From a virus, in the IMG/VR virus record IMGVR_UViG_3300008448_000032, positions 22,903 to 86,902 of that record: a DNA stretch of 64,000 nt; one strand, given 5' to 3'. Positions 1 through 24,182 of this stretch are shown here, piece by piece; within the stretch, counting starts at the first letter, position 1; every line of letters starts with the position of its first letter. The notes under the pieces were generated by a model that made no database searches, was not told the DNA's origin, and was given only the letters and a program-made list of their open reading frames with translations. Both the position numbers and the translations under genes were made by a program.

Positions 1-1215
1 CTTCCAGAAGTCATTGAAGGGATGAAGAAAATAATGGGAGACGAGAAAGCAAAAGAGTACATAAAACTTTCAAATGAAGTTAGTGATATAGCTCAAGCTT
101 ACTATTGGATAATTCCGGTAGAAGTACAGGAGAGAATGTGGAAAACCAATAAAGAGGGGATGAGTGGAGTAGTTGGCGTTGATTGGGAAGAAAAAACTGA
201 ATCTGAAGAAGACCTAGCTAAAAAAATTCTGGATAGTCTAAATAAAGACGGGGATCTTCCTAAAGAAGAGACCGAAGAACTTTTCTACGAAACTCAGCCA
301 ACAATAAAAGCAAGGGGGAAAGATTTTTCTATGCTTATCCACGAAACGGTTAAAGGAGTTTATGAACTAATCGCTGCTATTGCAATTCCTGACGGCGAAG
401 AGGTAGCGGGAACAGTTCTTATGAATACAGATTCATTAGCAGATGAAATAGAAGATCTTAGATATGGACCTAAGATAGCATCCGATATTAGAGACTACCT
501 AAATACGTTCCCTGAAGTTCAAAATGATGAAGTTCCTAATCTAAGAGAACACATCATGGGCAAACTCTACATCATGGATGCCCCAGAATTTCTAGATGTT
601 ATTCTTTCTATACTTAATGGGGATAATAGACACAGAAGAAATATAGAAGGAATAATTAAAGATGTAATTAAAGAGATAAGAGATTTTGAACTAGAAGGAG
701 CTTTAGGAGATTTTGGTATAGATAACGATGACGATTATATGCCAGAACCACAGGGTAAAAAAGATTATTCTCAAATGGATAATGTAGATCTTAAGAGACA
801 TCTGGATGATGCTTTAGATAGAAGGGATTTTGACGAGGCAAGAATAATCCATTCTTATATAAAGGAATCTAAAGAAGCAGACGAGGCTTGGGCTCTAATC
901 CACACTTACGGAGGATACCCTTCTAATTCAGATCCTTCCCAGATAAATGAATCCGAAGAATTCAATGATCTATATAAAGGAACAGTTCTGACAATGGACG
1001 TTATAGATGGAAAGACCAGAGAGAAAAAAGGAACCATAAAAACTAAAATAAACGAAATGGTTCTAGAGGGTAACTCTTATTTTCTAAGATGTTCCGGAGA
1101 CGTAAATATAGTTTACGATAAAGACACACAAGAATTTGTAGAAGGTTATAAACCCCAATATTTAGTTTATCAATTGGATGAATCAAATTCTCAAATTCTA
1201 GATTTTTTAAAATAA
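1..1215 (+). CDS. Unrecognised acidic protein with UVR-like helical motif (5' partial)
   Basis: The reading frame is open from the first base, with seven codons before the first ATG at 22, so the gene probably starts upstream and the N-terminus is missing. The visible 404 residues are strongly acidic. Around residues 255-285 a helical stretch (VDLKRHLDDALDRRDFDEAR) resembles the UVR motif seen in UvrB, UvrC and McsA, which mediates protein contacts. No catalytic motif is visible. It precedes a gene with a candidate capsid-targeting N-terminus, separated by a promoter-like box. I do not recognise the family; a structural or regulatory phage protein are both possible. Confidence 0.7.
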   Translation, partial: LPEVIEGMKKIMGDEKAKEYIKLSNEVSDIAQAYYWIIPVEVQERMWKTNKEGMSGVVGVDWEEKTESEEDLAKKILDSLNKDGDLPKEETEELFYETQPTIKARGKDFSMLIHETVKGVYELIAAIAIPDGEEVAGTVLMNTDSLADEIEDLRYGPKIASDIRDYLNTFPEVQNDEVPNLREHIMGKLYIMDAPEFLDVILSILNGDNRHRRNIEGIIKDVIKEIRDFELEGALGDFGIDNDDDYMPEPQGKKDYSQMDNVDLKRHLDDALDRRDFDEARIIHSYIKESKEADEAWALIHTYGGYPSNSDPSQINESEEFNDLYKGTVLTMDVIDGKTREKKGTIKTKINEMVLEGNSYFLRCSGDVNIVYDKDTQEFVEGYKPQYLVYQLDESNSQILDFLK

Positions 1216-1277: not shown

Positions 1278-2762
1278 ATGAAAACAACAAGACCAGTATT
1301 TGAAAGTTTTTATTCTTTCGTAGATTTTCTTAATGAATCTATTGATGGAGAATATTACGAAGATTATCTTTTAGAGGATGAAGGAGATCCGGGAGATGAA
1401 TTAGATTCTGACACAGAAACCGGAAAGCTTTCCGAATTTTCAAATAGTCTAAGAGGGATGGAAAAAATTAATCCAAAAATTGTAGAAAAACTTTCAGCTT
1501 CATTTAAAACATTGGTTACCGATGCAGGAGCAAAAGCTTTGGAATCTTATGCCCAAAAAATTGCATCTTTTGCTGCATCTACGAAATCAGGAGTTAAATT
1601 GATAAGAAACCAATTGACTGGAGGTGGCGCCGGAGCATATTATAAGTGGTTAATTAACGGGACTTGTAAAGTTAAAGGTCAGCCAGCAATGAATGAAGAA
1701 GGAGTTATTAGAGATCTAGCTTTAACTGTAGATGACGATGGATCGTCTTTCTACCCTCTTTCTGATGTTCTTATTGGAATATTACAGAGAAATTTGAAAG
1801 CTTTATCCGATGTATTGGCAACAAAAGATGAAAAAACAATCCAAAAAGCTGCTAATGGAGGTAAAAAAGGAGGAAATGGAATAATTGAAAAAAAACAATT
1901 GTTAACGATAGATCCAGCATCAATAAAAACCAGAATATTAGAAGTACTCCCGTACGAGAAAGAATTCCATACGGCGGCAAAAAAAGATATGAGAGACGGG
2001 ACTCAAGTGGGACCAAAAGACAGCTATGTAATTTCTGCTTCCCGACTAGACGGAAAAGATAAAGTTAAATTTGGGAGATATGAATATGCCTTTGTCCTTC
2101 CTATTTGGGCTTTAGTCCCATCGTCTATAAAAGCATCTACCAACAAGGTGGATGAAAAAACATATACGACTGTTCTTCCCCCTGCTCAGGGAACTGAAAT
2201 TAAAATTGTAGATAAGCCTTTTAATTCTTCTAAAGAGCAATTCTTTTCAGCAGGATCCGTAACTTTATTACAATCAGGGGTAAATGATATGAAAGCTATG
2301 CTTTCTCAATTTAATTCGATAGAAAAAATAAAAGTTGTAGGTGGAGCATCCCAAGCTCCTACTAAATATGTATCTTCTAATGAAGAAACAAAAAAAGAAA
2401 TTACCCAAGAAAATACAAAAGCAGCAAAAGTGTTAATAGGAAATGGATATCTTGCTTATGACCGAATGCTAGCAGGGGTAAGCGCTTTTGAAAAAATGAA
2501 GGAAGATGGAATCCAGCAACTTAAAAATTGTACTATAGAAAAATCTACGGCAGATGAAGTTCTTAAAAATGTACAAACGATAGATGCAGAAAGTGATCCT
2601 AAAATGCAACAAATTACTTTTTATGTTAGTGGTATGGTCAAAGGAGTAGATCAAATAGCAGATAATAAACCAACTATAATTAAAAGGACTGTTGACATAA
2701 CATCTCAACAGGTGAAAATTGTTCAATTTCAATATGTTTTAGCATTTGATATTAAGAAATAA
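1278..2762 (+). CDS. Candidate capsid-packaged internal protein, possible OmpA-like C-terminal region
   Basis: This 494-residue protein starts with a short motif (FVDFLNE then SI, Glu at residue 20). The motif matches the capsid-targeting sequences of T4 internal proteins, where the prohead protease cuts after L/I-x-E. An acidic linker follows (about residues 24-50). The middle is rich in Lys, Ala and Gly. The stretch from about residue 320 to 400 (FFSAGSVTLL, then KVVGGAS, then ENTKAAKVLIGNGYLAYDR) has the spacing of an OmpA-like peptidoglycan-binding domain, but the usual GHTD/NxxLSxxRA residues are only loosely matched. It has its own promoter box and ends at a strong terminator, so it is probably monocistronic. 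Packaging is inferred; the OmpA resemblance is tentative. Confidence 0.75.
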   Translation: MKTTRPVFESFYSFVDFLNESIDGEYYEDYLLEDEGDPGDELDSDTETGKLSEFSNSLRGMEKINPKIVEKLSASFKTLVTDAGAKALESYAQKIASFAASTKSGVKLIRNQLTGGGAGAYYKWLINGTCKVKGQPAMNEEGVIRDLALTVDDDGSSFYPLSDVLIGILQRNLKALSDVLATKDEKTIQKAANGGKKGGNGIIEKKQLLTIDPASIKTRILEVLPYEKEFHTAAKKDMRDGTQVGPKDSYVISASRLDGKDKVKFGRYEYAFVLPIWALVPSSIKASTNKVDEKTYTTVLPPAQGTEIKIVDKPFNSSKEQFFSAGSVTLLQSGVNDMKAMLSQFNSIEKIKVVGGASQAPTKYVSSNEETKKEITQENTKAAKVLIGNGYLAYDRMLAGVSAFEKMKEDGIQQLKNCTIEKSTADEVLKNVQTIDAESDPKMQQITFYVSGMVKGVDQIADNKPTIIKRTVDITSQQVKIVQFQYVLAFDIKK

Positions 2763-5864: not shown

Positions 5865-6473
5865 ATGTCATACACAAGAGAACAAATTGAAGCGACAGTA
5901 AAATCTAAAGGGTATGTTTGGTTTGAAGATTCTTCGAATAAAACTTACGATGTTAATATTGTAGGGGTTAGGAATACTTCTCCTGCGGTTTACAAAAAAG
6001 TAACAAACGTATTCGATGACCATCTAACTCTTTCCTTTAAAGATGAAAAGGGAGCTTGGCAATACTATTGCTGGATGGGAACTTGCGATCCCGGAAAAAA
6101 AGGAGTAGAACAATTCCACAATAAAAAAGGTGTTGCTAGACTAGTTCCTGGACAGTATAGAGGAGTATGGAAAATAGACCTACACCAAGGAAAATATGAA
6201 GCTCTTTGTCAAAGAAATGGAAATGTTACGGTTTGGAGAGATGCAAATAGGGATTTAGTTTTCGAAGAGAATGTAACGGATACTGGAATTTTTGGAATCA
6301 ATATCCACAAAGCAGGACAAGATTCAGCTTGGGTTGAAAATTGGTCCGAAGGATGCCAGGTGTTCAAAAGAGTTAAGGATTTTGATGTGTTTATGTCTAT
6401 ATGTAAAAAAGCATCAAAAATTCATGGAAACAAATTTAGCTATACTCTTCTAGAATCAACAGATATAAAATAG
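5865..6473 (+). CDS. L,D-transpeptidase-like muralytic enzyme, candidate endolysin
   Basis: This 202-residue protein has a C-terminal block INIHKAG (His148) followed about 16 residues later by WSEGCQVF (Cys164). That is the His...S-x-G-C arrangement of YkuD/L,D-transpeptidase-fold enzymes, which act on peptidoglycan peptides. The N-terminal part (IEATVKSKGYVWFED, then VPGQYRG) resembles a family I associate with Bacteroidota phages and putative lysins. There is no signal peptide, so export would need a holin, and a holin candidate lies about 750 bases upstream. It has its own promoter box and lacks the capsid-targeting motif of its neighbours. Enzyme class is fairly likely; the substrate bond is not determined. 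Confidence 0.75.
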   Translation: MSYTREQIEATVKSKGYVWFEDSSNKTYDVNIVGVRNTSPAVYKKVTNVFDDHLTLSFKDEKGAWQYYCWMGTCDPGKKGVEQFHNKKGVARLVPGQYRGVWKIDLHQGKYEALCQRNGNVTVWRDANRDLVFEENVTDTGIFGINIHKAGQDSAWVENWSEGCQVFKRVKDFDVFMSICKKASKIHGNKFSYTLLESTDIK

Positions 6474-6477
6474 TAAA

Positions 6478-7884
6478 ATGTCTAGAAGAGTTAAAAATTA
6501 TTGGAATTTTTTAAATGAAGGAAATGCCCTTACTAAAAGTAAGGCAGCAAAAACTATAACTGCTGTTATAGACCCCGATACAAGGAGAAACATTAAAAGA
6601 AAATCCCAAGGAGAAATAGAGCAAAGTAAATCCAAAGACGGACAGACTTGGGCTGCAGATACTAGATACACATATCTTCCAGAGGAAGAAGGATATGTGG
6701 GATGGTCCAAATTTCACTTCGGTAAAGTAGTTTTGAGGGAAATCGAAGAAGAAGGATCAACAGAAAATGTGTATGAAGTTTTAACCGGACTAAATAAAGG
6801 GGTAAAAGGACCTTACGAATGGCAATCCGGAAATATCGGAACCCCAATTTACAATCCTCCGTATGGAAAAAAATGGGCAGATCTCCTAGGTCCTGACGAG
6901 GAATTCTTCAACAATTATGAATGGAATTCTAATCCTCCGATGAAAATTACATCTGTTCCCGGAATCGAAATAGCTAAAGTTGGGAATAAAGGGGAATGCC
7001 AATTAATCTACACCGATAAATTTCAGCTTTACGGAAAAGTAAAAATATATCATGATTTTAATTCAGATTCTAATTTTTCTTATGAGGTTTCGGATGGAAA
7101 TAATAAAGGAAAAAAAGGAAAAGGATTTTCTTTTATAAAAAGGGAAGAACTAGAAACAAAAGAAATTACTCCTTCTACCGAATTCCCTATTTTAAATAAT
7201 TTTTCAAAGGACGGAGAAATAATAAAAGCTTATGTAAAATTCCCTTATCCAACTCACAATGGATCAGGGTTTGGTGCCCAGTATGCAGGAAGTCCTTCGG
7301 GTAAACCTTATTCAATACCTTCTTCGTCAATAAACCCGGATCATTATATATGGTTAGATACTTCTGAATTTGAATCTATAAATTCTTCTAGCCTAGATGT
7401 TTTCAAATCTCTTTACGGAGATTTGAAATATAAAGATAAATTCGGAGAAAAAACTCTCGGAAGTCAATATCAAGAAAAATCTAAATATTATTGGGCAGAC
7501 ATAGGATCAGAGATAAAAGGGAATAAATTATCAGGATCTTATCTTTTCAATTATTTAGGATCTGGAAGCTACATCTATCTATATAGTGTTAATTCAAAAA
7601 ACGAGAGTAATGCAAGATTAAAATGGGACGATGAAGTAGGATGTTTTGGTAATAATTTTTTCACTGGACTTTTTATTACGGGGTTTGATCTTAAAAATCC
7701 AGGGGATAAATATACTAGAGAATATCTAAAAGGAGAATGGTTTTGGGATTACAAGAACAATTATGTGTGTTTACTATATGCTTATAATTCAAAAGGAGAA
7801 AAGAAAAGTGTAATATATAATTTAGATTCTCCTTCAGAACCGGTTCCTTATGATAAATGGGGGGGAGCAGGAGGAGATTGGTAA
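6478..7884 (+). CDS. Unrecognised protein with capsid-targeting-like N-terminus
   Basis: This 468-residue protein starts four bases after the upstream stop. Its first residues (VKNYWNFLNE then GN, Glu at residue 14) are among the clearest matches to a T4-type capsid-targeting sequence, with cleavage expected after L-x-E. A Lys/Arg-rich stretch follows (about residues 17-45). The remainder is rich in Tyr, Trp, Gly, Ser and Asn with a beta-like pattern, and includes repeated surface-type turns around WLDTSEF, YYWADIG and WFWDYKNNY. No catalytic motif is recognised. Two antisense frames cover its 5' end but look like shadows. Likely translationally coupled to the endolysin candidate. Confidence 0.75.
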   Translation: MSRRVKNYWNFLNEGNALTKSKAAKTITAVIDPDTRRNIKRKSQGEIEQSKSKDGQTWAADTRYTYLPEEEGYVGWSKFHFGKVVLREIEEEGSTENVYEVLTGLNKGVKGPYEWQSGNIGTPIYNPPYGKKWADLLGPDEEFFNNYEWNSNPPMKITSVPGIEIAKVGNKGECQLIYTDKFQLYGKVKIYHDFNSDSNFSYEVSDGNNKGKKGKGFSFIKREELETKEITPSTEFPILNNFSKDGEIIKAYVKFPYPTHNGSGFGAQYAGSPSGKPYSIPSSSINPDHYIWLDTSEFESINSSSLDVFKSLYGDLKYKDKFGEKTLGSQYQEKSKYYWADIGSEIKGNKLSGSYLFNYLGSGSYIYLYSVNSKNESNARLKWDDEVGCFGNNFFTGLFITGFDLKNPGDKYTREYLKGEWFWDYKNNYVCLLYAYNSKGEKKSVIYNLDSPSEPVPYDKWGGAGGDW

Positions 7885-9308: not shown

Positions 9309-9704
9309 ATGTCTCGTATAATAAAAATCGGCCATATAGAAGCATTAATAGATTATCCGGAAGATGTCGTAAATACTCATTGGGATCTAGCAGAAGAAAA
9401 GATAAAGAATAATTACGGAAAAGGATGGAGACTTCCTACAGTGGAAGAACTCCTTTATATAAAAGATTTATCCCTGGAGTTCGGTATTTTTTCAGATTTC
9501 AATGTCGACGATGATTATTGGACATCTAAATCCGGAGAGCCTGGTTATATTCCAGATCGTAATGAGTTCGGCGAAGATTTTAGATGGTTCTATCAGGTGA
9601 GAATGCCCAATAATAAAGATCTCCAGGGTTTCGAGGATTCCCAGAAAGAATTTCTTTGTCACGTAGATTATTACGGAAATATTTTACCGGTAAGAGATAT
9701 ATAA
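9309..9704 (+). CDS. DUF1566-like (Lcl C-terminal type) protein, paralogue 1
   Basis: This 131-residue protein carries the signature GWRLPTVEELLYI, followed about 30 residues later by DYWTS and ending with NILPVRDI. This is the typical frame of DUF1566/Lcl-type domains, which have a C-type-lectin-like fold in bacterial surface proteins. It has no signal peptide. Two shorter relatives follow at 10506 and 10880, around a cell-wall hydrolase gene. The family often binds ligands, so a receptor or carbohydrate-binding role is possible, but nothing here proves display on the virion. Confidence 0.75.
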   Translation: MSRIIKIGHIEALIDYPEDVVNTHWDLAEEKIKNNYGKGWRLPTVEELLYIKDLSLEFGIFSDFNVDDDYWTSKSGEPGYIPDRNEFGEDFRWFYQVRMPNNKDLQGFEDSQKEFLCHVDYYGNILPVRDI

Positions 9705-9714: not shown

Positions 9715-10506
9715 ATGAAAACTATTAAAAATTTTAACGAATTTGTATCCGAATCTATTTTAGATTCACCTATTTTCCAAAAAATTGGATCACTTGTTAA
9801 ATCCACCCTGAATAGATCGGTAAATACTACTGAATATGAAAATGAGGTGGAAAAAGGAGATGCTGCAGAACCCGGAGGAGTTATGGGAGAATCCCCTATA
9901 GGAAGAGGAACTTCATTAGAATCCGATATGAAATTTACCAAAGAAGAGATGGAAACCTTTGGAGAAAAAATAGGAATAACCGATAAAGGAGACAAGGCAA
10001 AATTGGAACAGCCCTCCACCGGTCCTATAGGAAATATATCAAATTCTGCGTATGCTAACCTAAATGTTTCTACAAGAGGAATCCCGGGTACGGATGGTGG
10101 AAATCTTGGATGTGCTGCTGCGACTTCTATAATGTTCTATCGGGCAACTGGATATTCCTTAGCCGGGGGAACGACGGTTTGTATAGGAACTCTTACCATA
10201 TATGACGAATTGGATAAGAAAAGTAAAGAACCTTTATCTCCTTGGAAAAAGGTAACAGATTGGAAAAATGATTACATGCCTGGTGATATTATCGTTACTA
10301 GAAGAAGATCCAGACCTGGACATATCGGGGTAGTGGTTAATGATGGAAATATAATTTCAAATTCTTCATCTGGATTTAAAGGAGATAAAATGGGACAAAT
10401 AGAAGAAAATTACACTATAAAATCCTGGGATAGCGTAGCTAGAAGAAATCCTACGGAAACCGCAATATTTAGATACCAAGGTCCTTACAAGAACAGCTGG
10501 TCTTAA
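9715..10506 (+). CDS. Candidate capsid-packaged cysteine peptidoglycan hydrolase (NlpC/P60- or CHAP-like)
   Basis: This 263-residue protein begins IKNFNEFVSE then SI (Glu at residue 13), one of the best matches to a T4-type capsid-targeting sequence. A low-complexity linker runs to about residue 105. The C-terminal domain has a catalytic-type Cys in NLGCAAATS (Cys133), a MPGDIIVT segment and His203 in RPGHIGVVVNDG, the order and spacing of NlpC/P60 and CHAP amidases/endopeptidases that cut peptidoglycan. There is no signal peptide. The final stop overlaps the next gene start (TAATG), so the two are probably coupled. If packaged, the enzyme would be released at infection rather than at lysis. 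The hydrolase call is fairly sure; packaging is inferred. Confidence 0.8.
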   Translation: MKTIKNFNEFVSESILDSPIFQKIGSLVKSTLNRSVNTTEYENEVEKGDAAEPGGVMGESPIGRGTSLESDMKFTKEEMETFGEKIGITDKGDKAKLEQPSTGPIGNISNSAYANLNVSTRGIPGTDGGNLGCAAATSIMFYRATGYSLAGGTTVCIGTLTIYDELDKKSKEPLSPWKKVTDWKNDYMPGDIIVTRRRSRPGHIGVVVNDGNIISNSSSGFKGDKMGQIEENYTIKSWDSVARRNPTETAIFRYQGPYKNSWS

Positions 10507-10883
10507 TGAAAAGATTTATAGCAGGAAGAGTAGAAGTTTGTCTCGGATATGATTTTGAAGAGATGGATAAATCTGATGCTATAGAAAAATGCAAACAATT
10601 AGGCCCCGAATGGAGATTGCCAAATGAGAATGAAATCAGGTACATTTGCCAAAATTTATCTTACGGAGGGAATTCTGATTTTTGGACTTCTAGTGGAACC
10701 TTGGGAGGAATAGTTAATCGAAGAGGAAAATTCCTTAATGAACCCTCATATTGGATGGGAGAGCCCGAAGGAAGGAGTAGGTCATATATATATGATTGTC
10801 AATTTACAGGAAATAGATGTTTTCAAGTATTCGATAGATCTAGAAAGACGAATTCTGTATTTATGGGCGTTAGAGAGATATGA
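10506..10883 (+). CDS. DUF1566-like protein, paralogue 2
   Basis: This 125-residue protein has the same frame as its neighbour at 9309: EWRLPNENEIRYI, then SDFWTSSG and a terminal GVREI. Gly- and Arg-rich loops lie between (about residues 65-100), where lectin-like folds usually vary. It starts on the stop codon of the hydrolase gene (TAATG) and its end overlaps the third paralogue by four bases. The three therefore read as one operon, which suggests a joint role. No signal peptide is seen. Fold assignment is by motif only. Confidence 0.72.
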   Translation: MKRFIAGRVEVCLGYDFEEMDKSDAIEKCKQLGPEWRLPNENEIRYICQNLSYGGNSDFWTSSGTLGGIVNRRGKFLNEPSYWMGEPEGRSRSYIYDCQFTGNRCFQVFDRSRKTNSVFMGVREI

Positions 10884-11203
10884 AAATGATAGATCTAGGA
10901 CATACAATAATGGAGATTTCTGAAGATTCTAAAGATGGAAAATGGAAGGATTTCAATGAGTTATCAGAGAAAGAGGGATTTAGATTTCCTACTTTAAATG
11001 AGCTAAGGTATTTATATTCACTAAAAAAAGATCTCGGAATAGGAGATTTTGCTGATAGATGGTTTTGGTCTTCTGAAGTTATGGAAAGAAACATATATTC
11101 TCCTGGATCTAAATATTATTTTAAAGATTTTAGGGATGGAATAGAAGATTGGGAATACGCATATATGAGATCTGCTTGTCTTATAAGAGTTTACGATAAA
11201 TAG
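10880..11203 (+). CDS. DUF1566-like protein, paralogue 3
   Basis: The shortest (107 residues) and most diverged member keeps FRFPTLNELRYL and RWFWSSEV, and ends with a diverged CLIRVYDK. It begins four bases inside the preceding paralogue and is followed within about 15 bases by a hairpin terminator, which ends the hydrolase/DUF1566 operon. The three paralogues are clearly different from one another, so the duplications are old or diversifying. Function unknown. Confidence 0.68.
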   Translation: MKMIDLGHTIMEISEDSKDGKWKDFNELSEKEGFRFPTLNELRYLYSLKKDLGIGDFADRWFWSSEVMERNIYSPGSKYYFKDFRDGIEDWEYAYMRSACLIRVYDK

Positions 11204-12356: not shown

Positions 12357-13421
12357 GTGAACAATCTTAATAGATTCTGCGAATGGGCGATCAATGAAGC
12401 CTCTTATTTTACTAAATGGGCTTCTACCCCATCGAACATAACAGCAGCTCAAAAAAGAGACATTGAATCCAAAGTAGAAGCTTCTTCTTCTGTTGATATG
12501 GAAATTCTTAAAAATTTCAATCCTTCTTATAGCTCTAGATATTGGGAGGCTTTAAAAATAAGATTGGGAGAAAATAAAATAAAATTTAAATATGGAAACA
12601 CCTCAGCAATTCCTAAGCAGTGGATATATTGGGGAGAAAAGGTAATATATTCCGACAAAAGACCACTCCTTTCTAGAAATAACTCAACTAAAGAGGAGGT
12701 TTTAGCTTATTTTCCTATCCCATTCAACGGAGTAGTTCTAGATAAATTTTGGGTTGTTGCAGTATGGAAAAACGCTTCGGGAGTAAATATGTTAAGGGAA
12801 ATGTCTTTAAAGACATACCTTACTAAAAGTACTAGGGATATAATAGATATTTATTTTAAGGGATATTCTTCCCCGGTGACCAATAAATCAAATCCCAAAG
12901 ATTATTGGACCCTTATCGCTATAATGGCCTGTGAAAATTTTCCAGAACAATCTCAGGGAATGGCAGATGTTGCTCAATCTATATACAATAGATATTATGT
13001 TAATGGAAAGCCTTACGGTAAAACCATATCTGAAATAATACTTGCTAAAGGACAATACGAACCCGTTACAAAAGGATTAAAGAAAGGAGCAGACTGGAAA
13101 AATGTAAATAGCAGATCTAAAGCTATAAGTGTTTATATGAAGACTAAAGGAAGTACATCAGATGTAGCTAATAAAGCAATAAATAATGCTATAGCTGCAC
13201 AATCCGGTAAATCTTATGTCTCCCAGGCAAAATCCCACGTGAAGACAAGAACAGAATTTTTGGCTTCTTCTCCTAAGTCTTCTTCCGCGGTTTCTCCGGT
13301 AGAAAGATCTGATCCAAAAAAACACAATTCTTTTTTCTGGAACTATGCCGGAAAAAATCAATATTATGCTAAAAAAGATTTCTCAGCAAAGCCTATCCCA
13401 TCGGAAGTTAAGATCGCTTAA
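12357..13421 (+). CDS. Candidate capsid-packaged cell-wall hydrolase (SleB-like)
   Basis: This 354-residue protein uses a GTG start placed just after the promoter box. The N-terminus (LNRFCEWAINE then AS, Glu at residue 14) fits the capsid-targeting pattern. After an unassigned region, residues about 180-310 resemble the SleB/hydrolase_2 family, which cuts peptidoglycan glycan strands: IAIMACENFPEQSQGMADVA (Glu193 as the likely catalytic acid), SIYNRYY, TISEIILAKGQYEPV, and a later HNSFFWNYA. There is no signal peptide. It is the second muralytic enzyme in this region with such an N-terminus. Hydrolase family is fairly likely; packaging is inferred. Confidence 0.8.
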   Translation: MNNLNRFCEWAINEASYFTKWASTPSNITAAQKRDIESKVEASSSVDMEILKNFNPSYSSRYWEALKIRLGENKIKFKYGNTSAIPKQWIYWGEKVIYSDKRPLLSRNNSTKEEVLAYFPIPFNGVVLDKFWVVAVWKNASGVNMLREMSLKTYLTKSTRDIIDIYFKGYSSPVTNKSNPKDYWTLIAIMACENFPEQSQGMADVAQSIYNRYYVNGKPYGKTISEIILAKGQYEPVTKGLKKGADWKNVNSRSKAISVYMKTKGSTSDVANKAINNAIAAQSGKSYVSQAKSHVKTRTEFLASSPKSSSAVSPVERSDPKKHNSFFWNYAGKNQYYAKKDFSAKPIPSEVKIA

Positions 13422-13878: not shown

Positions 13879-14847
13879 ATGAGAGAAATTCTAGAATACG
13901 AAAGTTTTAATCCTCTTCACGAATCTAAAAAATATGAGGGCCTAAGATCTGTTAAAAAAACTTGGGGTGGAGAATACATTCTAGACGTTGACGATTATCA
14001 AAAGACAAACAGCAAACCTTTAAAGGGATCTATATTAATAGGAAAGGATAGCGGAAAAGCCGTTGCTCTTACATATTTAAATCCGGATGGAAGCGAATCT
14101 AAATACCTTTGGGTTCCTTATTTCGGAGCTTATATGAATAGAAATACCGCAGGAGGGATAAGCTCTATTAAAATAACACCTTATAAAAATTGGTTATCGC
14201 AGTCAGAAAATGAAAAAAAGCTTGAAGATTTTTTAGATGGATTTCAAGAATCTATAGAAAAAGAAAAAACTGAAAGCGAGAAAACCGTAGGACTTCAGGC
14301 ACAAAAAGATTTAGACCTTATATTAGACATGTACGGAATAAATTCTCCGATAGAAAAATTTGAAAAAGGGGATAGAGAAAATGAATGGAGAGCTATTCTA
14401 GAAAATGGATTTGTCGTCATAATAAAAAAGAGATCTTCTGAGGATCTTGTAGGAGAATTTAGAATTTACCCCAAGGAAAAAGAAGAATTTCCATATATAG
14501 AGATAAGCACGGAAAAAAATGAGAAAGGGTTTAAATTTAAAAGACCCGGAGAATATATGATTCGAAGAAGAATAGATATGACCGACCTCAAAAAAGATCC
14601 CGTAGCTTTATACCTGTTTAAGAATATAACAGGTCTCCAAGAATATGAGGACGAAAAATCATTATTGAACTATTTTGAATCTCTAGTAAAATCTCAGGAT
14701 ACTTCTTACCAAATGTCGGATGATTCCAGATCTTATAAGAGTGGACAGTCCGAAAGAGAAGAAATAAATCTGGTTTCCAAATTACTAGAGGATTTCTTAA
14801 CTTCTAAAAAAATAGAAGAAATCTACACAAAGAACAAAAAAAGATAG
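13879..14847 (+). CDS. Unrecognised protein with capsid-targeting-like N-terminus
   Basis: This 322-residue protein begins ILEYESFNPLHE then SK (Glu at residue 15), fitting the hydrophobic-x-Glu then Ser pattern of the other candidates. The next section (about residues 20-90) is beta-like with GSILIGKDSGKAVALTYLNPDG. Highly charged Glu/Lys helices follow (about residues 105-150), then a second mixed domain. No catalytic motif is recognised. It begins two bases after the upstream stop and is probably co-transcribed with it. Confidence 0.72.
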   Translation: MREILEYESFNPLHESKKYEGLRSVKKTWGGEYILDVDDYQKTNSKPLKGSILIGKDSGKAVALTYLNPDGSESKYLWVPYFGAYMNRNTAGGISSIKITPYKNWLSQSENEKKLEDFLDGFQESIEKEKTESEKTVGLQAQKDLDLILDMYGINSPIEKFEKGDRENEWRAILENGFVVIIKKRSSEDLVGEFRIYPKEKEEFPYIEISTEKNEKGFKFKRPGEYMIRRRIDMTDLKKDPVALYLFKNITGLQEYEDEKSLLNYFESLVKSQDTSYQMSDDSRSYKSGQSEREEINLVSKLLEDFLTSKKIEEIYTKNKKR

Positions 14848-17035: not shown

Positions 17036-18946
17036 ATGTATTACTTTTCAGGGACAAACCCTAACGATGCAACAGATGGATTTAGCGCTGGGGAAAATTA
17101 TCCAGGGTCTCCTTTATATCAAAGTATATTACAGGAAAGATCAGGTCTTCTAAATTCCTATCTTAGCAACATAGGATCCGAAAATCCGACAAAAGCTAAA
17201 TTTGGACTTCCCAGATCTCTTTTTTACGACGGAGCAAAATTAGATCCCGATGTTAAACAGGCAGAAAAGTATGGGCTCTTTATGTTCTATTCTTTCGACG
17301 GATCAGGGGGAACTAATTTTTTCTTGGATCAATATTACCTATCTGAGAAACCAGAATATAATAAATTAATATCCTCTCCCGCTTCCAAAAATCCCACAGC
17401 TGCCCAGCTGGTAAGAAATAGCGATGCTTCTCTGTTATTATCAGCGGGAAAAAGTGCTGATGAGATTCAAAAGAATAATCCTATAAGAGGGGGAATACAC
17501 GCTCCTTATTATTGGAAAGATTTTGTTTATTGTAAATATTATGGGACTATACCTAATAATAGACTAATAACTCTAAGAAGGTTTTCTAGTCCGGTTTTAG
17601 ATAATTTTTCTCTTCCCCCGGGATTGAGAAATGCTGAAAACCTAAAGAAGGGGGTAGGTATGCCTGTCGCACAAGCGGTTACTTGGTTTGGAGGGAATAC
17701 CGGGAATACTTTAAGTACTCTCGTAGGATTTAGCACCGGATTAGCTTGGACCGATCAACAAATTGATGCTGAAAAAATACAGAAAGCTTTTGGGGATGGA
17801 CTTATTAATTCTACTGCATTCGAAACCCTTAGCGATTTAGTCTCCCAGGCAGGAGGTAACGGAACAGATGTAAAATTAAGGGAGGAGGAAAAAAAATTAG
17901 GAGTAGAAGCTTTAGCTACAGGTCTTAGCCCAGATAGAGAACAGCTAACAAGAGAAAGATACTATAAAGCTTTTTTCGATGCCGTTAAAACCGACACCGA
18001 AGGAAGATTTGGTATCCTTAATGAAAAAATATGGGTTCCTGTAGATGTTATAAAAAGCACATCAAAAAGAGATTTTGGATTAGATTTTACTTGGCAAGAT
18101 CTTGTTCTTAAATTTTCATACGATCTTACCTCAGTAGGAGAAGTTAATAGTAAAGCAGCTATGTTTGATATCCTAGGTAATTTGCTCTCAATAGGAACAA
18201 ACTATGGTAATTTTCTAACCCCTTATATAAGATATAATTCTGAATACTCAGCTTTAACTTTTCCTGGGGGGGATGCGGGGGCAAAACTTTTCTATACAGA
18301 TCTTAACCAATTTATTTTTAATAACATACAAAAAATGTTTATTAGCGATAATTCCAGTACTACCGGGGTAGGAGGAACTACGGTAGATAAGCCTAAAGTA
18401 GAAGGATTTGAAACGAAGCTAACGCAGTTACAAGCAGATCTAAATGATGGAGTAATTGACAATCCCGAATTGGCAAAAGAACTTTTTGATGCTATACAAT
18501 CCGTTTTTGGATCGAGAGCAGCCCAAGAATGGCAAGCTCCTATTTCTATGTACAGCGGAGCTGCGATAGGAGAATGGCATGTTGTTATAGGAAATCCATA
18601 TAATCCAATAGCAATGATAGGAAATCTTATATGTAAAGGGGTAGTTATTAAATTTTCAGATACATTAGGACCTGACGATTTCCCTTCTGGTTTAGAAGCT
18701 GAGATAACCGTAGGACACGCAAGACCTAGGGAGAGAGGAGAAATTGAAAGTATATTTAATAGAGGAGATGGAAGACTTTATCAAAGTGTTCAGACTACTT
18801 CTTCTAATGCACAAACGTACAATTCCGAATTTGATGTTTCTGGGCAGGTATTCAATCCCCTTACTATTCCTACTTTCTATAATCCTTCCGATGGAGGATT
18901 ACCAGGATCCGGAGGCCCAGTAACTTTTGATGACCTTGAATTGTAG
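17036..18946 (+). CDS. Tail/baseplate structural protein, unassigned
   Basis: This 636-residue protein opens the tail block. It is rich in Gly, Asn, Ser, Phe and Tyr and has no signal peptide. The C-terminal part (about residues 495-580) has a conserved-looking stretch, SGAAIGEWHVVIGNP then GVVIKFSDTLGPDDFPSGLE and HARPRERGEIESIFNR. It looks like a tube- or baseplate-type beta domain. I cannot match it to a T4 gene number. Its position next to LysM-like, hub and spike genes suggests a baseplate or tail-tube-associated role. Confidence 0.72.
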   Translation: MYYFSGTNPNDATDGFSAGENYPGSPLYQSILQERSGLLNSYLSNIGSENPTKAKFGLPRSLFYDGAKLDPDVKQAEKYGLFMFYSFDGSGGTNFFLDQYYLSEKPEYNKLISSPASKNPTAAQLVRNSDASLLLSAGKSADEIQKNNPIRGGIHAPYYWKDFVYCKYYGTIPNNRLITLRRFSSPVLDNFSLPPGLRNAENLKKGVGMPVAQAVTWFGGNTGNTLSTLVGFSTGLAWTDQQIDAEKIQKAFGDGLINSTAFETLSDLVSQAGGNGTDVKLREEEKKLGVEALATGLSPDREQLTRERYYKAFFDAVKTDTEGRFGILNEKIWVPVDVIKSTSKRDFGLDFTWQDLVLKFSYDLTSVGEVNSKAAMFDILGNLLSIGTNYGNFLTPYIRYNSEYSALTFPGGDAGAKLFYTDLNQFIFNNIQKMFISDNSSTTGVGGTTVDKPKVEGFETKLTQLQADLNDGVIDNPELAKELFDAIQSVFGSRAAQEWQAPISMYSGAAIGEWHVVIGNPYNPIAMIGNLICKGVVIKFSDTLGPDDFPSGLEAEITVGHARPRERGEIESIFNRGDGRLYQSVQTTSSNAQTYNSEFDVSGQVFNPLTIPTFYNPSDGGLPGSGGPVTFDDLEL

Positions 18947-21093: not shown

Positions 21094-23505
21094 ATGAGTT
21101 TTGGTTTTTCAGGAGCAACCGATAGGGATAGGTATAGGTTTTTAAGCGGGTTTAAGCTTAACGACCAGGGAAAAAATGAGGATCCAACATATCTCGGATT
21201 CTCCGTAGATTTTGTTTTTGATGATGGCCCGGGGATAGATTCGGATTATGGAACACCAATAAGTCCTTTATTTAGAGAGGGAAACTATTCCCCTATTGCT
21301 GGTCCGAATATATTCGGGCAAGACCAATATCAATTCAGAACCGGAGAAGTTTTGTTTTATTCTGCTCAAAGATATTTAGAGAATAGAGAGCAGAGGGAAA
21401 ATTTTACTACGGTCGGAAAAAGATCCCAGATGCTTAAACAATTTAAAATTCTTTTAAGGGATATAACAAAAAATCAGCCTTGGTTTTTTCAATCGATATC
21501 CGGTCTTGATGCCCTATATAAAGTTGCAAGACCAGGATTTCAGGATCAGGGGGGATCCGATGATTTTAATCCTTCTAGAGCTAATACCATAGAAATAAAA
21601 ACTTTAGAGTCTTTAAATTTAAGAATGACCGCTCTTGCGGATTTATATAATCACGCTACTTTCGATTACGTGAATATGAGAGAGACTATTCCTAGAAATT
21701 TAAGAAGATTCAGGATGAACATTTTTGTTACGGATCTTAGAAATTTCTTCAAAACGAATAGACTTATAAATTCTTCTACCACCCTAAGTACGATAGCCAA
21801 TACTGCAAATTTATTGGGCTCGGGAATAAATCCAGGAAATAATTTAGCTGCTTCTACTTTGGACAGCACGGGGAATTTTGCAACGGATAGCGGATCTGGA
21901 GGACTTCTCAATATTGGCCAAAATGCCTTAAGTTCTGAAGGATTGAGCAATCAGCAGGATCAAACTGGGATTAAGCCCATAATTGTTATACAGTGTAGTA
22001 ATTGCGAGTTTGATTTTACTGAAAGTTCTCCCATATCTTCCGATATAAATGCGGGAACCGACGCAGGACAACCCCTAGAACAATCCTTTAAAATCCACGT
22101 AGGAAGAGTAAGAATAAGAAGCCAGTATCCAAATATAAGGTTGGACAAAAGACAATTGATAATATCTGATGATGTGTTTACCGAAAAGAGCTCAGTCCAG
22201 GCTTACGAAGGAGATCCTTCGGGAAGAACTATTTTTGGTATTGATGTTTCGAATGGTCCAGCAGGGGATCTACTTGAACAAGGAGGAAATGCTGTTAATA
22301 ATTTAATAGGAAACACTGTAAATGACCTTTACAACCGGGGAGCTCAAATATTAGGGGATTCCCTTAGTGGAGTAGATCAATTGTTACTGGGAAATATATA
22401 CTCTTTTAATCCTTCCGAAATAATAAACGCTTCCGATTTAAGTTTAAACGATATTAGGGATTTTTCAAATCAAAAATCTAGTGTAAATATTTCTCGAGCT
22501 GAAAGAGAAGGGTTACCTAACCCTCAGACAATGGGAAAAGGGGGTCCTCCTGAAAATAAGTATTCTACCCGAAAATTAGGGGCAAAAGGACAGGACGAAT
22601 ATCCGAGAGTTCCTGGACGAGATCTAGGTGTTACGCCTCCAGGTTCTCCAACGATAGGAAGAGTTTATGACAATGTTGGGAGTCCTTCCGATGCTTATAC
22701 TAATGTTCCGGGAAAAGATTTAGGCCCACCGGGAAGAACTTACAGAGCTCCTAGAGAAGATGATAAATACAAAGGAGTTCCAGGAAAGGATCTTGGGGGT
22801 CAAAGAAGAATTTATAAGAACCCAACAGGAGATTCTTATAAGGGGGTTCCTGGTAAAGATTTAGGGGTTCCCCAAAGAGTTTATCCTACCACAAATGAGG
22901 ATTTTTATCCTGATGTACCCGGAAAAGATCTAGGTGTTCCCCAAAGAGTTTATCCGGATATTAAAGAGGATATTTACCCCGACGTACCAGGAAAAGATTT
23001 AGGAGTTCCCGAAAGAAGATATCCTTTGGTAAATGACGATATTTATCCTGACGTACCGGGTAAAGATTTAGGAGTTCCGGAAAGAAGATATCCTTTGCTA
23101 AATGACGATATTTACGCTGACGTACCTGGTAAAGATTTAGGGGTCCCTGGAAGAAAATACCCTTTGGTTAATGATAATTTATATAGAGACGCTATTGTAA
23201 AATCTAATGAGTTAAAATCTAGAGAAATAGTTTATAAAGAAGAAATAAAATCTAAAAACTCTGGGCTAGGAGATGCATATACGGACCCCAAAAAGGATTT
23301 ATCCCAGTTCGACACTAAACCTTCCCCGGTATACCCTCAGGAGAAAACAAAATATTTCAGAGGAGGTCTTGGCGATCTTTATCCCCCTACGCAAGAAGAT
23401 TTTAACCCAGATTCTCCAGGGGATTTAGGAAACTTAAAACCTAAAGGGTCGTATAATATAAGTCTTGGAGGTAAAAATCCAGACCCTACTAAATTTAATT
23501 CTTAA
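21094..23505 (+). CDS. Tail tube/baseplate-like protein with VPGKDLG repeats
   Basis: This 803-residue protein has an N-terminal globular part (about residues 1-385). It includes NLRRFRMNIFVTDLRNFF and a later IVIQCSNCEFDF, which resemble tube- or tube-initiator-type beta domains in contractile tails. After a low-complexity linker comes a proline- and glycine-rich region (about residues 500-695) with eight copies of VPG[KR]DLG spaced by about 20-30 residues and interspersed with RxYP. The C-terminus is similarly low-complexity. The stop overlaps the spike gene start (TAATG). The position between hub and spike suggests an inner baseplate or tube role; the repeat function is unknown. Confidence 0.75.
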   Translation: MSFGFSGATDRDRYRFLSGFKLNDQGKNEDPTYLGFSVDFVFDDGPGIDSDYGTPISPLFREGNYSPIAGPNIFGQDQYQFRTGEVLFYSAQRYLENREQRENFTTVGKRSQMLKQFKILLRDITKNQPWFFQSISGLDALYKVARPGFQDQGGSDDFNPSRANTIEIKTLESLNLRMTALADLYNHATFDYVNMRETIPRNLRRFRMNIFVTDLRNFFKTNRLINSSTTLSTIANTANLLGSGINPGNNLAASTLDSTGNFATDSGSGGLLNIGQNALSSEGLSNQQDQTGIKPIIVIQCSNCEFDFTESSPISSDINAGTDAGQPLEQSFKIHVGRVRIRSQYPNIRLDKRQLIISDDVFTEKSSVQAYEGDPSGRTIFGIDVSNGPAGDLLEQGGNAVNNLIGNTVNDLYNRGAQILGDSLSGVDQLLLGNIYSFNPSEIINASDLSLNDIRDFSNQKSSVNISRAEREGLPNPQTMGKGGPPENKYSTRKLGAKGQDEYPRVPGRDLGVTPPGSPTIGRVYDNVGSPSDAYTNVPGKDLGPPGRTYRAPREDDKYKGVPGKDLGGQRRIYKNPTGDSYKGVPGKDLGVPQRVYPTTNEDFYPDVPGKDLGVPQRVYPDIKEDIYPDVPGKDLGVPERRYPLVNDDIYPDVPGKDLGVPERRYPLLNDDIYADVPGKDLGVPGRKYPLVNDNLYRDAIVKSNELKSREIVYKEEIKSKNSGLGDAYTDPKKDLSQFDTKPSPVYPQEKTKYFRGGLGDLYPPTQEDFNPDSPGDLGNLKPKGSYNISLGGKNPDPTKFNS
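22597..23178 (+). repeat. Tandem coding repeat, VPGKDLG units
   Basis: Eight in-frame copies encode a VPGKDLG heptad followed by Pro/Arg/Tyr/Asp-rich spacers. The last four units are almost regular at 22 residues (66 bases). The spacers drift towards the left end, as in repeats that decay away from a recently expanded core. Confidence 0.85.
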
Positions 23506-24182
23506 TGTCATCTAGTAAGTCATATCTCGGGGTTATAGTAGATATAAACGACCCGTTAAAGCAGGGAAGAGCCAAAGTAAGAGTTTTTGGTATATTTGAT
23601 GATCTTGAGATTGAAGATATACCTTGGTCGGAACCAGGAACAGCTAGTGAATATTTCGGGGGAGGAAAAGGAGGGGGAGCAGTTAGTGTTCCTAGACTTG
23701 GGGCCGTAGTCTATTGTTCTTTTGAGTCTGAAAATTACTATAAGATGTATTTTGACATCATAAAAGAATTTTCTCCCGACCTCGTAGAGGAAATGAATGA
23801 AGAAAATTCTTACGAAGGATTCCATTCATTAATATATGATTCTGAAGCACAGCCAGGAAGTTTAAAATTATTCTATAGCCGAAAAAAAGGTTTAGTTTTT
23901 GAATTAGGGGATGCCAAAGTTCAATTGGATACCCAGAACGGAGGAGAATTAAGGGTTGTAATAAAAATGGGGGAAGACGAAATAAGAATGGAGAATAAAA
24001 AGGTCATAGTAAATTCGTCAAATATAGAATTAGGAGAAGGAGCAGCTCAGTCTGTAATACTCGGAGATTTGTTTAAAGATCTTTTTAATTCGCACACACA
24101 TCCCACCCCAGTAGGCCCATCCGGAACTCCTGTACCTTTGATGACTCCAGCTCAGTTAAGTCAAGTTTCTAAAACTAAATAA
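23505..24182 (+). CDS. Baseplate central spike protein (gp5/GpV-like), no lysozyme domain
   Basis: This 225-residue protein starts with an OB-fold type segment (YLGVIVDINDPLKQGRAKVRV, then DIPWSEP and GAVVYCSFE) typical of phage spike proteins. A beta-helix-like part follows (KVQLDTQNGGELRVVIKMG, then KKVIVNSSNIELGEG), and it ends with a HTHPTPVGPSGTPVP tail like those found at spike tips. T4 gp5 has a lysozyme domain between these parts; here there is no room for one. It begins on the stop codon of the repeat protein and follows the hub gene closely. The assignment is strong from motif order and context. Confidence 0.88.
   Translation: MSSSKSYLGVIVDINDPLKQGRAKVRVFGIFDDLEIEDIPWSEPGTASEYFGGGKGGGAVSVPRLGAVVYCSFESENYYKMYFDIIKEFSPDLVEEMNEENSYEGFHSLIYDSEAQPGSLKLFYSRKKGLVFELGDAKVQLDTQNGGELRVVIKMGEDEIRMENKKVIVNSSNIELGEGAAQSVILGDLFKDLFNSHTHPTPVGPSGTPVPLMTPAQLSQVSKTK

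What the first reader, a model, noticed from the sequence alone, without database searches (positions are those of the whole stretch)
9715..10506. NlpC/P60- or CHAP-like hydrolase with a capsid-targeting motif
Cys133 and His203 lie in the right motif order for a peptidoglycan-cutting enzyme, and the N-terminus FVSE|SI predicts packaging. Together they suggest a hydrolase carried inside the head and injected or released at entry, not at lysis.
Basis: partly seen in the sequence, partly recalled or inferred. Interest (0 to 1): 0.7.

Follow-up and report, generated by a model that had tools for sequence, protein, structure and literature searches.

The report
Head-packaged cell-wall hydrolase of phage
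A giant Bacteroidetes phage encodes a predicted cell-wall-cutting enzyme that carries the same kind of short N-terminal tag that phage T4 uses to load proteins inside its capsid, suggesting the enzyme travels with the DNA to help it through the cell wall at entry; nothing has yet been tested at the bench.

Summary
Window 9715-10506 is a 263-aa ORF. Residues 105-263 form an NlpC/P60-CHAP domain: a relative passes the Pfam CHAP cut-off, Foldseek's best solved structures are peptidoglycan hydrolases, and Cys133, His203 and Asn216 are invariant. Relatives are fused to phage lysozyme, glucosaminidase or PG-binding domains.

The N-terminus MKTIKNFNEFVSE|S matches all four positions that mutational work assigned to targeting and processing in T4 IPIII (MKTYQEFIAE|A). 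A model trained only on T4 and capsid-protein sites ranks it above all 254 internal control windows. Sister contigs encode a gp21-type prohead protease and a major capsid protein with the same type of cleavage site (YCHFHSLNE|SA).

The tag is not private to this protein. About a dozen proteins between the capsid and tail genes carry it, including a SleB-type hydrolase and an alpha/beta-hydrolase. Tag sequence follows phage clade rather than enzyme.

Best reading: a T4-style internal head protein ejected at entry to cut the cell wall. Packaging is well supported by inference; release into the periplasm is a guess. The same domain sits on a tail-module-type protein in other phages, so a tail location is the main structural rival.

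The parts
9715..9753 (+). Predicted capsid-targeting propeptide, residues 1-13 (MKTIKNFNEFVSE), cut predicted after Glu13
   Evidence: Matches T4 IPIII at P7 (F/Y), P4 (F), P3 (V/I) and P1 (E) (PMC9026906); score 9.7, above all 254 internal windows; Glu13 kept in all 10 aligned sequences with a leader
9754..9813 (+). Post-cleavage conserved segment, residues 14-33 (SILDSPIFQKIGSLVKSTLN), shared with unrelated proteins of the same clade
   Evidence: Cassette HMM hits on esterase-like C1:11834-12613 and on G010 95893 and 96562 proteins; within-clade identity between unrelated genes 0.36-0.45 v. 0.11-0.13 between orthologues of different clades
9814..10026 (+). Variable, largely low-confidence linker, residues 34-104
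   Evidence: AlphaFold2 pLDDT below 50 for residues 1-63, about 51-74 for 61-100; variable with gaps in alignment A1
10027..10503 (+). NlpC/P60-CHAP (papain-like) catalytic domain, residues 105-263
   Evidence: Foldseek v. PDB: Lys2972 endolysin E 6.8e-4, Tse1/Tae1 amidase 3.9e-3, MepS 1e-2; Pfam/PHROG
10111..10113 (+). Catalytic Cys133 codon
   Evidence: Invariant in A1
10321..10323 (+). Catalytic His203 codon
   Evidence: Invariant in A1
10360..10362 (+). Asn216 codon, candidate third catalytic residue (inferred)
   Evidence: Invariant in A1; in the strand that follows the His203 strand in the model
12357..13421 (+). Second tagged cell-wall hydrolase: SleB-type Hydrolase_2 domain with N-terminus MNNLNRFCEWAINE|AS (GTG start)
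   Evidence: Pfam PF07486 1.8e-6, above cut-off; leader F..W..NE conserved in L005 and G010. Its score with the T4-trained matrix is weak (3.9)
1278..2762 (+). Tagged cargo protein of unknown function (FVDFLNE|SI)
   Evidence: Score 11.6, above all internal controls
6478..7884 (+). Tagged cargo protein of unknown function (YWNFLNE|GN)
   Evidence: Score 8.1, above the 99th percentile of controls
1..1215 (+). C-terminal part of a tagged protein that starts upstream of the window at C1:22426 (MIKSFEQYLNE|AS)
   Evidence: Score 10.4, above all internal controls
13879..14847 (+). Probable tagged cargo protein (MREILEYESFNPLHES); orthologue in G010 is clearer (GFNSLNE|SK)
   Evidence: Regex hit; G010 orthologue score 7.6
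23505..24182 (+). gp5-like baseplate hub protein, 225 aa, no lysozyme domain detected (context)
   Evidence: phrog_430 1.7e-15 over residues 2-79 only; Pfam Phage_base_V, sub-threshold; PF00959 not found in the contig or 14 relatives

Best explanation
The protein is a peptidoglycan hydrolase of the NlpC/P60-CHAP fold loaded into the prohead by a T4-type capsid-targeting propeptide. Proposed steps: (1) the leader MKTIKNFNEFVSE binds the prohead core during assembly; (2) a gp21-type prohead protease cuts after Glu13, leaving a mature enzyme that starts SILDSPIF; (3) the enzyme stays in the head with the DNA, together with other tagged proteins including a SleB-type hydrolase and an alpha/beta-hydrolase; (4) it leaves with the DNA through the tail tube at infection and cuts peptidoglycan near the entry point. 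Shown here by sequence and structure comparison: fold, conserved Cys/His, leader similarity to T4, recurrence of the leader, and protease plus capsid cleavage-type site in sister contigs. Inferred: packaging, cleavage, ejection, and release on the periplasmic side.
For: Fold: Foldseek PDB hits to Lys2972, Tse1/Tae1, MepS, CwlO; CHAP above cut-off in L010; Cys133, His203, Asn216 invariant. Peptidoglycan as substrate: the domain is fused to Phage_lysozyme2 (L015), Glucosaminidase (L036), and PG_binding_1 + Phage_lysozyme2 + GDSL (L037). Packaging: T4 sequences fetched here align with the leader at the four IPIII determinants given in PMC9026906; matrix score above all 254 controls, with 8 of 46 genes in the MCP-to-hydrolase region over the 99th percentile of controls v. 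0 of 33 elsewhere (Fisher p 0.018) and N-termini of that region above internal windows (p 5.9e-5), replicated in sister contig G010 (11/49 v. 1/43, p 0.0045); simpler regex test p 2.9e-5 and 2.6e-9. Machinery: PF03420 protease in G004 (E 1e-10) and G003; G004 and G010 capsid proteins carry YCH[FY]HSLNE|SAGAY, and the G004 protease ORF runs on into tandem YLAE repeats. Leader behaves as a module: shared with unrelated proteins and following clade not gene. No T4-type lysozyme (PF00959) in this contig or 14 relatives.
Against: No virion proteomics exists for this phage. The contig (86.9 kb) starts inside the capsid gene and does not itself hold the protease. Leaders of the clade with EQLF after the hydrophobic stretch (L006-L013) score poorly with the T4-trained matrix, and genome-wide enrichment in G004 is weak (p 0.035). 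Three multidomain relatives (L015, L036, L037) lack a clear leader, and in L040-L043 the domain ends a 1030-1120-aa protein of tail-module type, so a head location is not a fixed property of the domain. No export signal was seen by eye, so how an ejected enzyme would reach peptidoglycan rather than the cytoplasm is unexplained.
Confidence: 0.62

Rival explanations
1. It is packaged and injected, but works in the host cytoplasm on something other than peptidoglycan (a papain-like protease or amidase, for example against a defence or regulatory protein), as T4 IPI and Alt act in the cytoplasm.
For: T4 internal proteins are delivered with the DNA and known ones act on host proteins (PMC3012670, PMC9958956). 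No export signal seen; other tagged proteins (for example NUDIX in L015, L037) look like cytoplasmic effectors.
Against: Close structural matches are cell-wall enzymes; relatives are fused to lysozyme, glucosaminidase and PG-binding domains; a SleB-type cell-wall hydrolase carries a similar leader.
Confidence: 0.15
2. It is a tail-tip lysin that docks in trans on the baseplate hub, replacing the lysozyme domain missing from the gp5-like protein; the N-terminal motif is a docking peptide, not a head signal.
For: Same domain is C-terminal in L040-L043 proteins whose N-terminal part is homologous to a Flavobacterium phage immuto protein encoded downstream of the tape measure gene, annotated there as carboxypeptidase; PHROG match to a tail protein with lysin activity; gp5-like protein has no detectable lysozyme domain.
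Against: Leader is shared with about a dozen proteins encoded between the capsid and tail genes and resembles the capsid-protein cleavage site; genes beyond that region, mostly tail genes, show no excess (p 0.41 against internal windows).
Confidence: 0.13
3. It is an ordinary endolysin used for lysis at the end of infection.
For: CHAP and NlpC/P60 domains are common in endolysins; best PDB match is an endolysin.
Against: A separate endolysin-like candidate without a leader lies at 5865-6473 (phrog_3000 1.9e-33, phrog_33083 endolysin 1.1e-9). A conserved T4-type propeptide has no obvious role in a lysis enzyme.
Confidence: 0.07

Closest known systems
T4 internal head proteins IPI, IPII, IPIII and Alt (capsid-targeting sequence, gp21 cleavage)
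   Same: Short N-terminal propeptide with aromatic P7/P4, hydrophobic P3, Glu P1; sister contigs have a gp21-type protease and a capsid protein with a like site
   Different: Known T4 cargo are anti-restriction or ADP-ribosylating proteins; none known to me is a cell-wall hydrolase. Here about a dozen tagged proteins and at least two cell-wall hydrolases
T7 gp16 ejection protein with lytic transglycosylase domain
   Same: Head-borne peptidoglycan hydrolase released into the periplasm at DNA entry (PMC8954989)
   Different: Different fold (transglycosylase v. cysteine hydrolase), podovirus core stack, no T4-type targeting propeptide; T7 gp16 also carries membrane and DNA-binding regions
NlpC/P60 and CHAP virion-associated peptidoglycan hydrolases of tailed phages (tail lysins; T4 gp5 for the tail-lysozyme principle)
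   Same: Same catalytic fold and the same presumed job of local wall cutting at entry; jumbo-phage NlpC/P60 proteins are reported as sometimes tail-associated (PMC7824862)
   Different: Those sit in the tail; this one has a head-type leader and no tail domain
Giant-phage ejection proteins of SPN3US and phiKZ (prohead-protease-processed)
   Same: Large set of processed inner-head proteins in a large-genome phage (PMC5694885)
   Different: Propeptides there are often over 100 residues with A-X-E or S/A-X-E sites; the leaders here are short and T4-like

Membership tests
NlpC/P60-CHAP peptidoglycan hydrolase | Papain-like NlpC/P60-CHAP fold | tested here: met
   AlphaFold2 model, domain pLDDT mostly 77-92 with lower-confidence stretches near residues 121-130 and 221-230; Foldseek v. 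PDB best E 6.8e-4, TM-score to many NlpC/P60 and Tse1 targets about 0.5-0.6 when normalised by target
NlpC/P60-CHAP peptidoglycan hydrolase | Conserved Cys and His in order, third polar residue | tested here: met
   C133, H203, N216 invariant in 11 sequences; active-site geometry was not measured
NlpC/P60-CHAP peptidoglycan hydrolase | Profile match above curated cut-off | tested here: inconclusive
   Query below cut-off; relative L010 above the CHAP cut-off
NlpC/P60-CHAP peptidoglycan hydrolase | Cleaves peptidoglycan | not testable with these tools
   Indirect only: fusions to lysozyme, glucosaminidase and PG-binding domains
T4-type CTS internal head protein | Short N-terminal propeptide with IPIII determinants and Glu at P1 | tested here: met
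   determinants from PMC9026906
T4-type CTS internal head protein | Phage encodes a gp21-type prohead protease and a capsid protein with a like cleavage site | tested here: inconclusive
   Met in sister contigs; own contig begins inside the capsid gene and has no match
T4-type CTS internal head protein | Present in head, cleaved after Glu | not testable with these tools
   No virion or proteomic data
Tail-associated lysin | Fused to or encoded with a tail-tip protein | tested here: not met
   Stand-alone 263-aa protein encoded upstream of the tail module; fusion to a tail-module-type protein seen only in distant relatives L040-L043

The most novel reading that the evidence does not exclude
In this lineage of Bacteroidetes giant phages the cell-wall-penetration function has moved from the tail tip to the head: the tail hub lacks a lysozyme domain and several envelope-degrading enzymes (CHAP, SleB, alpha/beta-hydrolase, GDSL) are delivered as free, CTS-addressed internal head proteins, with the leader acting as a swappable address label that co-evolves with the clade's prohead machinery.
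Probability: 0.35. Interest if true: 0.75.

Novelty: new variant of a known kind. Interest (0 to 1): 0.56.

Why it matters
T4 head cargo is known as anti-defence weaponry; a cell-wall hydrolase with the same address label would extend the internal-protein concept to envelope penetration in contractile-tailed giant phages. The label also offers a simple, testable way to read off the injected proteome of uncultured phages from sequence: in this contig it flags roughly a dozen proteins, most of unknown function. No paper found in the searches made here described a peptidoglycan hydrolase with a T4-type capsid-targeting sequence; those searches cover open-access full text only, and only titles, abstracts and chosen passages were read.

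Tried and rejected
Fusion of the VVVFGG esterase-like family to the CHAP domain in L037 looked attractive by eye but hhalign gave probability 0.2%, so it was dropped. Homology between the L041 tail-module-type protein and the window's hub proteins was not detectable, so equivalence of position is not claimed; L041 has no PHROG hub match either. tblastn against deposited phages found no relative of the hydrolase, nor did the bacterial genome scan. A strict four-determinant regex is enriched at N-termini in G000 (6 v. 0.9 expected) but not clearly in G010 or G004.

Full report
Where it lies. The window is bases 22903-86902 of an 86,902-base virus record. A tail-region protein (17036-18946) has its nearest deposited relatives in large phages of Bacteroidetes such as Prevotella Lak phages, Tenacibaculum PTm1 and Chryseobacterium MA9V-1. 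The record starts inside a T4 gp23-type capsid gene and runs to a gp32-like protein at window 61873. The hydrolase gene sits between the capsid gene and the tail module.

The enzyme. The ORF is confirmed. Pfam and PHROG matches on the protein alone are weak, but 11 relatives fetched from IMG/VR give an alignment in which Cys133, His203 and Asn216 never change, and one relative exceeds the CHAP cut-off. AlphaFold2 gives an ordered domain from about residue 105 and a disordered N-terminus. Foldseek against the PDB returns cell-wall enzymes of the NlpC/P60-CHAP fold: Lys2972, Tse1/Tae1, MepS, CwlO. The E-values are moderate, but the list is almost uniform in kind. A second search round shows the same domain joined to a glucosaminidase (L036), to PG-binding, phage lysozyme and GDSL domains (L037), to a phage lysozyme (L015) and to the end of a 1030-1120-aa protein (L040-L043). 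The N-terminal part of that last protein is related to a Flavobacterium phage immuto protein encoded downstream of the tape measure gene. Peptidoglycan is therefore the likely substrate, and the domain is mobile between protein contexts.

The leader. T4 sequences were fetched, not recalled: ipII and ipIII begin MKTYQEFIAE|A, gp24 MAKINELLRE|S, and gp23 has FGSFLTE|A at the end of its 65-residue propeptide (length from PMC9026906). The same review reports that IPIII positions 4 and 7 matter for targeting and 8 and 10 for processing. The window protein has Phe, Phe, Val and Glu at the four corresponding positions. A matrix trained on T4 sites and two capsid sites from sister contigs puts it above all 254 control windows. 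Sister contig G004 holds a gp21-type protease (PF03420, E 1e-10) whose frame runs on into tandem YLAE repeats, and both G004 and G010 capsid proteins carry HSLNE|SAGAY in the place expected of a propeptide end (the cut itself is inferred by analogy with T4 gp23).

Not a lone case. In the contig, 14 of 79 ORFs have a leader-like N-terminus against 7 of 242 internal controls (p 2.9e-5); in sister G010 it is 23 of 92 against 7 of 253 (p 2.6e-9). A few of these hits are plainly chance, for example in the capsid fragment itself. Matrix hits above the control 99th percentile fall in the capsid-to-hydrolase region (8 of 46) and never beyond it (0 of 33). Tagged proteins with a predicted activity include a SleB-type hydrolase whose leader is kept in three sequences (weak matrix score), a protein whose model matches alpha/beta-hydrolases with invariant Ser152, Asp186 and His245, and in G010 a GDSL-family protein. 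The hydrolase and the alpha/beta-hydrolase are neighbours in seven relatives.

Leader follows clade. In a 27-residue stretch around the cut site, hydrolase and alpha/beta-hydrolase leaders are on average 45% and 36% identical within each of two clades, whereas orthologues of the same enzyme in different clades are only 11-13% identical (permutation p 0.006 for same-genome pairs, with the caveat that the genomes within a clade are related). That is what a targeting label tuned to clade-specific head machinery, or repeatedly copied between genes, would show; it is not expected of an enzyme's own N-terminus.

How it would work, and where the argument is weakest. Packaging and cleavage follow the T4 model. 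Ejection with DNA is established for T4 IPI (PMC9958956). T7 gp16 is a precedent for a head-borne wall hydrolase acting in the periplasm (PMC8954989). The gp5-like protein of this phage is 225 aa with only the OB-type match, and PF00959 lysozyme is absent from this and 14 related records, so some other wall-cutting activity would be needed at entry. But all records may be fragments, no export signal was noticed, and relatives in other phages use the domain in a tail-type protein. My estimates: fold about 0.9; packaging about 0.75; periplasmic action at entry about 0.5.

Noticed in passing
window 9309-9704, 10506-10883, 10880-11203; C1:11362-11781: Small proteins with a WRLP/FRFPT motif (first one a sub-threshold Lcl_C match) flank the hydrolase, and another directly precedes the tagged alpha/beta-hydrolase; the arrangement around the hydrolase is kept in G010 and L005. 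Possible partner proteins of the tagged enzymes.
   Followed up: partly
C1:11774-11833 (L004:274-333) and relatives L006, L010, L012, L013, G010: The alpha/beta-hydrolase frame extends upstream of the leader Met with a hydrophobic stretch, similar between some relatives; possibly an alternative start giving a membrane-directed form.
   Followed up: no
L016 (G004:C1, around 167206): gp21-type protease fused in frame to a scaffold-like region of tandem repeats with a YLAEN core, which look like serial protease sites.
   Followed up: no
L019/L025 (G010:C1:1590-3300): The capsid gene of G010 is split over two frames; frameshift, intron or assembly error not resolved.
   Followed up: no
L015:9354-9824, L037:5457-5933: A NUDIX protein with a strong leader (FNKFINE|SE, FNDFINE|SW) lies directly upstream of the hydrolase.
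   Followed up: partly
window 5865-6473: YkuD-like protein (sub-threshold) with PHROG endolysin match and no leader; candidate lysis enzyme.
   Followed up: no
L048:15033-15884: A further tagged protein in G010 with Cys and His motifs reminiscent of NlpC/P60 by eye but no Pfam match.
   Followed up: no
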